IMG/VR virus record: IMGVR_UViG_3300037521_000114
Span: 1 to 64,000 of that record
Source: a virus
DNA length: 64,000 nt
Strand: one strand, 5' to 3'
A model generated the notes under the pieces. That model saw only the letters and a list, made by a program, of their open reading frames with translations. It did no database searches and was not told the origin of the DNA. This document shows, piece by piece, positions 9,008-9,146 of this stretch. The position numbers were made by a program, and so were the translations under genes. Positions within the stretch are counted from its first letter, which is position 1; each line of letters begins with the position of its first letter.

Positions 9008-9146
9008 GAGACTTACTTCGTAGCTCTTCGGAGCAATCGTAGGTTCGAATCCTGCTTTCCCCACGATACATTAACAATACAATGGGGAAATAGCCAAGTG
9101 GTCAAAGGCAACTAATTTTGGTTTAGTTAAACACTGATGCAGTCTT
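9008..9146 (+). ncRNA. RNA block 4: circularly permuted tRNA-Gln(TTG)-like RNA
   Basis: The 3' half of a tRNA comes first: T-arm GTAGG-TTCGAAT-CCTGC (9039-9055), acceptor strand TTTCCCC (9056-9062), A9063. After a 19-nt linker comes the 5' half: T9083, acceptor GGGGAAA (9084-9090), TA, D-arm GCC...GGC with GG at 9100-9101 (9093-9109), and anticodon arm ACTAA-TTTTGGT-TTAGT (9111-9127), anticodon TTG. The two acceptor strands pair perfectly, closed by the linker. The outer ends pair as GAGACT (9008-9013) with AGTCTT (9141-9146), and TTACTTCG begins at the last paired base. A mini-hairpin GCTC-TTCG-GAGC (9023-9034) precedes the T-arm. An intron cannot explain reversed halves. Either a permuted tRNA gene or, more likely beside Ro60, a Y-RNA-like tRNA mimic. 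Confidence 0.7.

What the first reader, a model, noticed from the sequence alone, without database searches (positions are those of the whole stretch)
9008..9146. tRNA-Gln with its halves in reversed order
T-arm and 3' acceptor strand (9039-9063) lie before the 5' acceptor strand, D-arm and TTG anticodon arm (9083-9127). The acceptor strands pair perfectly over 8 bases (TGGGGAAA/TTTCCCCA) across a 19-nt linker. The permuted tRNA genes of some algae and archaea have this pattern; it is very unusual in a phage. Next to Ro60 it may be a finished tRNA mimic instead of a tRNA precursor. The phage has an ordinary tRNA-Gln(TTG) at 10810, so a second tRNA is not needed.
Basis: seen in the sequence. 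Interest (0 to 1): 0.92.

Follow-up and report, generated by a model that had tools for sequence, protein, structure and literature searches.

The report
Phage Y RNA mimicking permuted tRNA
The reversed tRNA is real, but it is most likely not a translation tRNA: it looks like a small RNA made for the phage's Ro60 protein, in which a complete tRNA shape, anticodon arm included, hangs on a Ro60-binding stem, and relatives in other phages connect the same parts in several different orders.

Summary
T-arm (9039-9055), 3' acceptor strand (9056-9063), 19-nt linker, 5' acceptor strand (9083-9090), D-arm and UUG anticodon arm (9093-9127) form a permuted tRNA. Two orthologues keep every helix, with 12 compensatory pairs. 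The interpretation needs changing. The element sits inside a Y-RNA-like stem (8989-8997/9157-9165; motif TTACTTCG) in an array of seven stem-closed RNAs just downstream of Ro60, five carrying that motif. Circular permutation is already known for bacterial YrlA Y RNAs (PMC11472068), so it is not odd for a Ro60 phage. What is new, as far as I could check: the anticodon arm is kept, and the Ro stem is grafted in the variable region. Rfam's YrlA model has no anticodon arm and does not match here. I found 32 such units in 31 loci (window's own included), a sister class with the anticodon arm on the other side of the stem (70 units), linear tRNAs inside the stem (31, including the window's 'tRNA-Ile' and 'tRNA-Tyr'), and natural-order tRNAs with a Ro hairpin in cultured crAss001. 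Anticodons break decoding rules (A34 other than ACG: 13/103 versus 11/828). Most likely: a non-decoding tRNA mimic in a phage Ro60 RNP. Its job, decoy or tether, is inferred.

The parts
6865..8634 (+). Ro60 / TROVE protein (Ro sixty-related), 589 aa
   Evidence: PF05731 E 6.5e-15; phrog_850 E 1.3e-30; 47% identical to csAssE-Sib 'Ro sixty-related protein'
8989..9165 (+). Y-RNA-like unit that contains the finding (unit 4 of the array)
   Evidence: outer inverted repeat (I9); 35 pairs, 12 with compensatory change in L003/L004; MFE z-score -2.44
8989..8997 (+). outer stem, 5' strand (pairs with 9157-9165)
   Evidence: two compensatory pairs
9009..9013 (+). inner helix, 5' strand (pairs with 9141-9145)
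   Evidence: one compensatory pair
9013..9020 (+). motif TTACTTCG, taken here as the Ro60-binding signature (inferred)
   Evidence: 5 copies in 8674-9432 (D1); the same motif in relatives
9023..9034 (+). small UUCG hairpin GCTC-TTCG-GAGC, absent from L003 and L004
9039..9055 (+). T-arm
9056..9063 (+). acceptor 3' strand TTTCCCCA
   Evidence: three compensatory pairs with 9083-9090
9064..9082 (+). 19-nt linker closing the acceptor stem
   Evidence: similar linker in L003/L004
9083..9090 (+). acceptor 5' strand TGGGGAAA
9093..9109 (+). D-arm
   Evidence: two of three pairs compensatory
9111..9127 (+). anticodon arm, loop TTTTGGT, anticodon TTG at 9118-9120
   Evidence: three of five pairs compensatory
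9133..9137 (+). strand that can pair with 9123-9127 in place of the anticodon-arm 5' strand; possible switch
   Evidence: 100% paired with three compensatory pairs in the same three sequences
9157..9165 (+). outer stem, 3' strand
8665..8758 (+). Y-RNA-like unit 1 (TTACTTCG at 8691)
8795..8890 (+). Y-RNA-like unit 2 (TTACTTCG at 8855)
8895..8973 (+). stem-closed RNA without the motif (unit 3)
9177..9245 (+). stem-closed RNA without the motif (unit 5)
9257..9385 (+). unit 6: linear tRNA-Ile-like module (9280-9352) inside the Ro stem
   Evidence: TTACTTCG at 9274
9402..9527 (+). unit 7: linear tRNA-Tyr-like module (9421-9492) inside the Ro stem; the 5' acceptor strand is replaced by the motif
   Evidence: Rfam matches only model positions 6-65 of 71

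Best explanation
It is a Y RNA of the phage's own Ro60 (TROVE) system. The two ends of the transcript pair into a Ro60-binding stem; at its top sits a complete tRNA fold. To fit on the stem the tRNA is circularly permuted: its acceptor ends are joined by the linker and the stem enters in the variable region, between anticodon arm and T-arm. The molecule is probably not opened into a tRNA and not charged. It displays a tRNA elbow and an anticodon arm on a Ro60 handle. Ro60 then either brings the partner of that mimic (host RNases such as PNPase, tRNA-modifying enzymes) to other RNAs, or holds it as a decoy against host enzymes that recognise or cut tRNA. Shown: sequence, order, conservation with covariation, the array next to Ro60, and the relatives in three other topologies. 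Inferred: transcription, Ro60 binding, lack of charging, and the tether or decoy function.
For: Five motif copies downstream of Ro60, Ro60 by Pfam. All six helices covary in orthologues beside 78% and 73% identical Ro60 genes. 32 units of this topology in 31 loci; a Ro60 match lies in the stored flank of 18 of 29 such loci. In the 27 distinct stretches of a pattern that does not look at acceptor, D-arm or anticodon arm, 22 have a permuted acceptor plus D-arm and 19 also the anticodon arm after it, against 165 and 123 of 702 chimeras and 77 and 5 of 2700 shuffles. Non-decoding: A34 other than ACG in 4 of 33 (this topology) and 9 of 70 (sister topology) versus 11 of 828 free tRNAs; L003 has AUG, L036 UUA. 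The body nearest by alignment has the anticodon's amino acid in 5 of 32 and 9 of 70 versus 69 of 100 free tRNAs. In most units a 3-9 nt loop closes the acceptor stem. Circular permutation of Y RNA relative to tRNA is published (PMC11472068, passages).
Against: No expression or binding data. Rfam's YrlA model does not match the unit even at E 10, so membership rests on architecture. The unconstrained MFE prefers another fold for the 3' half (-43.1 versus -39.0 kcal/mol). The anticodon loop keeps U33 and a purine at 37; U33 was required by the parser, purine 37 was not (30 of 30), so the loop is under some selection. ARAGORN also accepts 189 of 300 swapped halves, so its call is weak evidence alone.
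Confidence: 0.8

Rival explanations
1. A permuted tRNA-Gln gene: the precursor is cut at the linker and joined between anticodon arm and T-arm, giving a working tRNA.
For: Rejoined halves score as tRNA-Gln(TTG); the acceptor stem covaries; the loop TTTTGGT and a Gln-like 5' half are kept in L004.
Against: No tRNA splicing endonuclease, RtcB or RNA ligase family match in the 101-kb virus record (the record may be a fragment and host enzymes are not excluded). No bulge-helix-bulge by inspection. The joining site is a conserved Ro-type stem. Orthologue L003 has anticodon AUG; relatives have UUA and other A34 anticodons. An ordinary tRNA-Gln(TTG) is present at 10810.
Confidence: 0.06
2. A two-piece tRNA: RNase P and 3' trimming open the acceptor loop, and the two halves stay together through the Ro stem as a nicked tRNA that could be charged.
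For: Window, L003, L004, L109 and L166 have long 17-19 nt linkers. crAss001 relatives keep natural tRNA ends and carry the Ro stem as an extra arm. RNase P cutting of YrlA in vitro is recalled from Chen 2014, not seen.
Against: Most units have 3-9 nt loops and no room for an encoded CCA. The discriminator pairs with base -1 in window, L003 and L004. Anticodons break decoding rules.
Confidence: 0.12
3. Chance or decayed tRNA pieces in a tRNA cluster, or an assembly error.
For: Phage tRNA clusters do hold fragments (general knowledge).
Against: Same order in independent contigs with compensatory changes in every helix; 4 of 5000 shuffles.
Confidence: 0.02

Closest known systems
YrlA bacterial Y RNA (Rfam RF02553; PDB 6CU1)
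   Same: Stem formed by the transcript ends near a Ro60 gene; then T-arm, closed acceptor stem, D-arm in that order; circular permutation relative to tRNA (PMC11472068; RF02553 consensus seen).
   Different: The RF02553 consensus has no anticodon arm. Here a full anticodon arm follows the D-arm and the stem lies between it and the T-arm. RF02553 does not match this unit at E 10.
Sister class A in phages and some bacteria (this work)
   Same: Same TTACTTCG stem and a complete permuted tRNA with anticodon arm; co-occurs with class B in 6 loci.
   Different: The anticodon arm lies before the T-arm, so the stem sits between D-arm and anticodon arm. 12 weak YrlA matches in 9 loci include most class A units there and none of the 5 class B units.
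Permuted tRNA genes of red algae and archaea (recalled)
   Same: 3' half before 5' half; acceptor strands pair across a linker.
   Different: Those are processed by splicing endonuclease at a bulge-helix-bulge and decode; no such signal or enzyme was found here.
crAss001 array downstream of TROVE Gp96 (MH675552.1, unannotated)
   Same: Same motif (TTACTTCA) and stem-closed units; tRNA modules with anticodon arm and a Ro-type hairpin.
   Different: Natural order of tRNA parts; the Ro hairpin is inserted between D-arm and anticodon arm and closed by a tetraloop.

Membership tests
YrlA Y RNA | Encoded next to a Ro60/TROVE gene | tested here: met
   TROVE ORF 6865-8634, unit begins 355 nt after it
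YrlA Y RNA | 5' and 3' ends form a long stem | tested here: met
   9 bp outer and 5 bp inner helix, covarying
YrlA Y RNA | Order stem - T-arm - closed acceptor stem - D-arm - stem | tested here: met
   consensus of RF02553 read
YrlA Y RNA | Match to covariance model RF02553 | tested here: not met
   no match at E up to 10; 0 of 5 class B units
YrlA Y RNA | No anticodon arm in the tRNA-like domain (RF02553 consensus) | tested here: not met
   anticodon arm 9111-9127 with three compensatory pairs
YrlA Y RNA | Binding by Ro60 | not testable with these tools
   needs pull-down
Permuted tRNA gene | Tertiary-competent tRNA after rejoining | tested here: met
   ARAGORN tRNA-Gln
Permuted tRNA gene | Splicing motif (bulge-helix-bulge) and enzyme | tested here: not met
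   no motif by inspection; no family match in the record
Permuted tRNA gene | Conserved decodable anticodon | tested here: not met
   TTG in window and L004 but ATG in L003
Permuted tRNA gene | Mature joined tRNA in cells | not testable with these tools
   needs RNA

The most novel reading that the evidence does not exclude
Phage Ro60 RNPs carry sets of complete tRNA replicas, anticodon arms included, on a movable Ro60 handle that evolution has grafted at three places of the tRNA (acceptor end, D/anticodon junction, variable region) and opened at two different ends. The replicas present different anticodon arms as decoys or baits for host tRNA-cutting defences. In the window's lineage the anticodon arm may also be a switch between two hairpins that share one strand.
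Probability: 0.3. Interest if true: 0.87.

Novelty: new variant of a known kind. Interest (0 to 1): 0.68.

Why it matters
Bacterial Y RNAs are described as mimicking the D, T and acceptor arms of tRNA (PMC8394870, passages). Phages keep the anticodon arm as well, in several connections around one Ro60 stem. That limits what the RNA can be for: the shape is conserved while free acceptor ends and valid anticodons are not. It also means that some annotated phage 'tRNAs' beside Ro60 are probably Y RNAs. A cultured phage, crAss001, carries related units downstream of its TROVE gene, so the question can be tested.

Tried and rejected
Rejected: algal or archaeal type permuted tRNA (no splicing signal or enzyme, odd anticodons); permuted tmRNA (RF04321 14.1 bits, E 0.47); chance. 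A distant blastn of the array against phage records found only ordinary tRNA similarity in the rows listed. Two proteins of the window found no phage match, so the virus was not placed beyond Ro60 similarity to crAss-like phages.

Led nowhere or weak: anticodons within one locus are not significantly more diverse than shuffled (1 of 65 same-anticodon pairs, 2.8 expected, 20% of shuffles as low). The alternative hairpin at 9123-9137 is not general: 12 of 32 class B units versus 23% of swaps. Literature: Chen 2014, Wang 2018, Sim and Wolin 2018 and Sim 2020 are not held; statements about them are recalled or second-hand. That anticodon-bearing Y RNAs are not in print rests on searches in an open-licence library only; the unread papers could hold them.

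Rows dropped: from 34 class B parses I dropped L226 (weak arm, bacterial contig) and L186 (overlaps a linear tRNA call). From 35 stretches, one lacked flank and seven were duplicates. The parser requires the tRNA parts, so ARAGORN's 30 of 30 is partly circular; searches are the independent tests. The 'free' tRNA set still holds a few units that ARAGORN calls as they stand. The 30 class B units and the 33 include L186.

Full report
What is there. The reversed tRNA is real and its coordinates are right. T-arm 9039-9055, acceptor 3' strand 9056-9063, linker 9064-9082, acceptor 5' strand 9083-9090, D-arm 9093-9109, anticodon arm 9111-9127 with anticodon TTG. Standard finders miss it. When the halves are rejoined in silico ARAGORN calls tRNA-Gln(TTG). 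With the 3' part shuffled, 4 of 5000 sequences gave a comparable parse.

It is part of a larger unit. A 9-bp outer stem (8989-8997/9157-9165) and a 5-bp inner helix (9009-9013/9141-9145) enclose it. Five copies of one 31-nt element ending in or just after TTACTTCG lie in 8674-9432, each inside such a stem. With two motif-free stem-closed RNAs (8895-8973, 9177-9245) this makes seven units directly downstream of a TROVE/Ro60 gene. The two tRNAs that ARAGORN does call here, Ile at 9280 and Tyr at 9421, are inside such stems. In the Tyr unit the 5' acceptor strand is replaced by the motif, and Rfam matches only model positions 6-65 of 71.

Conservation. A scan with the Ro60 protein gave six viral loci. 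L003 and L004 (78% and 73% Ro60 identity) hold the same unit. On the three-sequence alignment all 35 pairs form and 12 change on both sides: outer stem 2, inner helix 1, T-arm 1, acceptor 3, D-arm 2, anticodon arm 3. No shuffle of 500 reached this, and sliding the partners by 1-3 columns gave at most one such pair. Against this: the unconstrained MFE uses another fold for the 3' half (-43.1 versus -39.0). One hairpin of that fold, 9123-9127 with 9133-9137, also covaries (3 of 5 pairs). So one strand has two conserved partners in this lineage, a possible switch; three sequences are too few to be sure, and it is not general in the class.

Relatives. Class B, as here, has the anticodon arm after the D-arm: 34 parsed, 32 kept, in 31 loci. 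Class A has the anticodon arm before the T-arm: 70 units, also found in bacterial contigs of Bacteroidota, Verrucomicrobia and others. Class C is a linear tRNA within the stem: 31 units. Of 31 class B loci, 19 also hold class C and 6 class A. An unselected test used 27 distinct stretches found with only the upstream motif, TTACTTCG and the T-loop: 22 have the permuted acceptor and D-arm and 19 also the anticodon arm, against 165 and 123 of 702 chimeras and 77 and 5 of 2700 shuffles. A Ro60 match is in the stored flank of 18 of 29 class B loci, 28 of 53 class A loci and 38 of 115 others; flanks are short and some of the others were fetched by Ro60 itself.

A cultured relative. crAss001 has an unannotated gap of about 0.9 kb downstream of TROVE Gp96. 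It holds stem-closed units with TTACTTCA and two tRNA modules in natural order with a Ro-type hairpin between D-arm and anticodon arm; ARAGORN finds none. The second folds by MFE into acceptor stem, a hairpin over the D-arm region, Ro hairpin, anticodon hairpin and T-arm, though its folding energy is not exceptional (z-score -1.35). Relatives L250 and L251 have further such modules with different but complementary acceptor strands (by inspection). This is class A with its ends moved from the Ro tip to the acceptor tip.

Does it decode? Probably not. A34 other than ACG occurs in 4 of 33 class B and 9 of 70 class A units versus 11 of 828 free tRNAs in the same loci (A+B versus free, Fisher p 1.6e-7; class B alone p 0.0018; loci are not independent). 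With the anticodon masked, the nearest free tRNA in other loci has the same amino acid for 5 of 32 class B and 9 of 70 class A units (1.6 and 3.5 expected), versus 69 of 100 free tRNAs. Acceptor loops are mostly 3-9 nt. On the other side, position 37 is a purine in 30 of 30 class B units, so the loop is under selection for shape. No RtcB, RNA ligase or tRNA splicing endonuclease family match was found in the 101-kb record.

What is known. PMC11472068 (passages) reports that bacterial Y RNA 6CU1 superposes on tRNAs as a circular permutation. PMC8394870 (passages) describes YrlA as a stem plus D, T and acceptor mimicry. The consensus of Rfam RF02553, seen, is stem, T-arm, closed acceptor stem, D-arm, stem, with no anticodon arm. 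RF02553 gave 12 sub-threshold matches (E 6e-6 to 0.18) in nine test loci, none over the five class B units there, and none in the window unit at E 10. So the permutation is the known YrlA plan; the retained anticodon arm and the variable-region graft are the difference. I could not read Chen 2014 or Wang 2018, so novelty is provisional.

Mechanism. Most likely the phage Ro60 holds these RNAs by the stem and uses the tRNA shape to engage a tRNA-binding partner. PMC7790460 (passages) suggests that YrlA could be a competitive inhibitor of an anticodon nuclease or take part in tRNA decay; PMC4726728 (passages) describes the Ro60-Y RNA-PNPase machine. Phage tRNAs that evade tRNA-cutting defences are reported in PMC10264068 and PMC11555353 (search listing only). 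PMC12282133 (passages) proposes Y RNAs and an Rsr homologue in a Listeria phage. crAss001 TROVE is an early gene (PMC10136315, passage). A decoy for anticodon-cutting defences fits the retained anticodon arms; tethering fits the general Ro60 model. Both are inferred.

Noticed in passing
window 9111-9137: Anticodon-arm 3' strand can pair with its 5' strand or with a downstream near-copy of it; three strands covary in window, L003 and L004: possible bistable switch.
   Followed up: partly
L213 (OR575929.1, csAssE-Sib) 5666-5738 and 5811-5884: Annotated tRNA-Tyr and tRNA-Lys just upstream of Ro60 are linear modules in Ro-type stems, probably Y RNAs; another permuted unit lies at 5519.
   Followed up: partly
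L248 (MH675552.1, crAss001) record 95964-96870: Unannotated Y-RNA-like array downstream of TROVE Gp96 with two natural-order tRNA modules carrying a Ro-type hairpin.
   Followed up: partly
L249-L252: Relatives of crAss001 keep the array; L252 differs in part of it.
   Followed up: no
window 8895-8973 and 9177-9245: Two stem-closed RNAs without TTACTTCG in the same array; the second has a GGGTTGAATTTCC stretch resembling a T-loop.
   Followed up: no
L126, L155, L243: Reduced units with a T-arm directly after the motif but no D-arm or anticodon arm found.
   Followed up: no
window 5055-6230: Adenylosuccinate synthetase of PHROG 1211 (2-aminooxy adenylosuccinate synthetase), which may point to diaminopurine in the phage DNA.
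   Followed up: no
window 6193-6792: HNH endonuclease directly before Ro60.
   Followed up: no
window 20732-35902: Open frame of 5056 aa on the minus strand, not examined.
   Followed up: no
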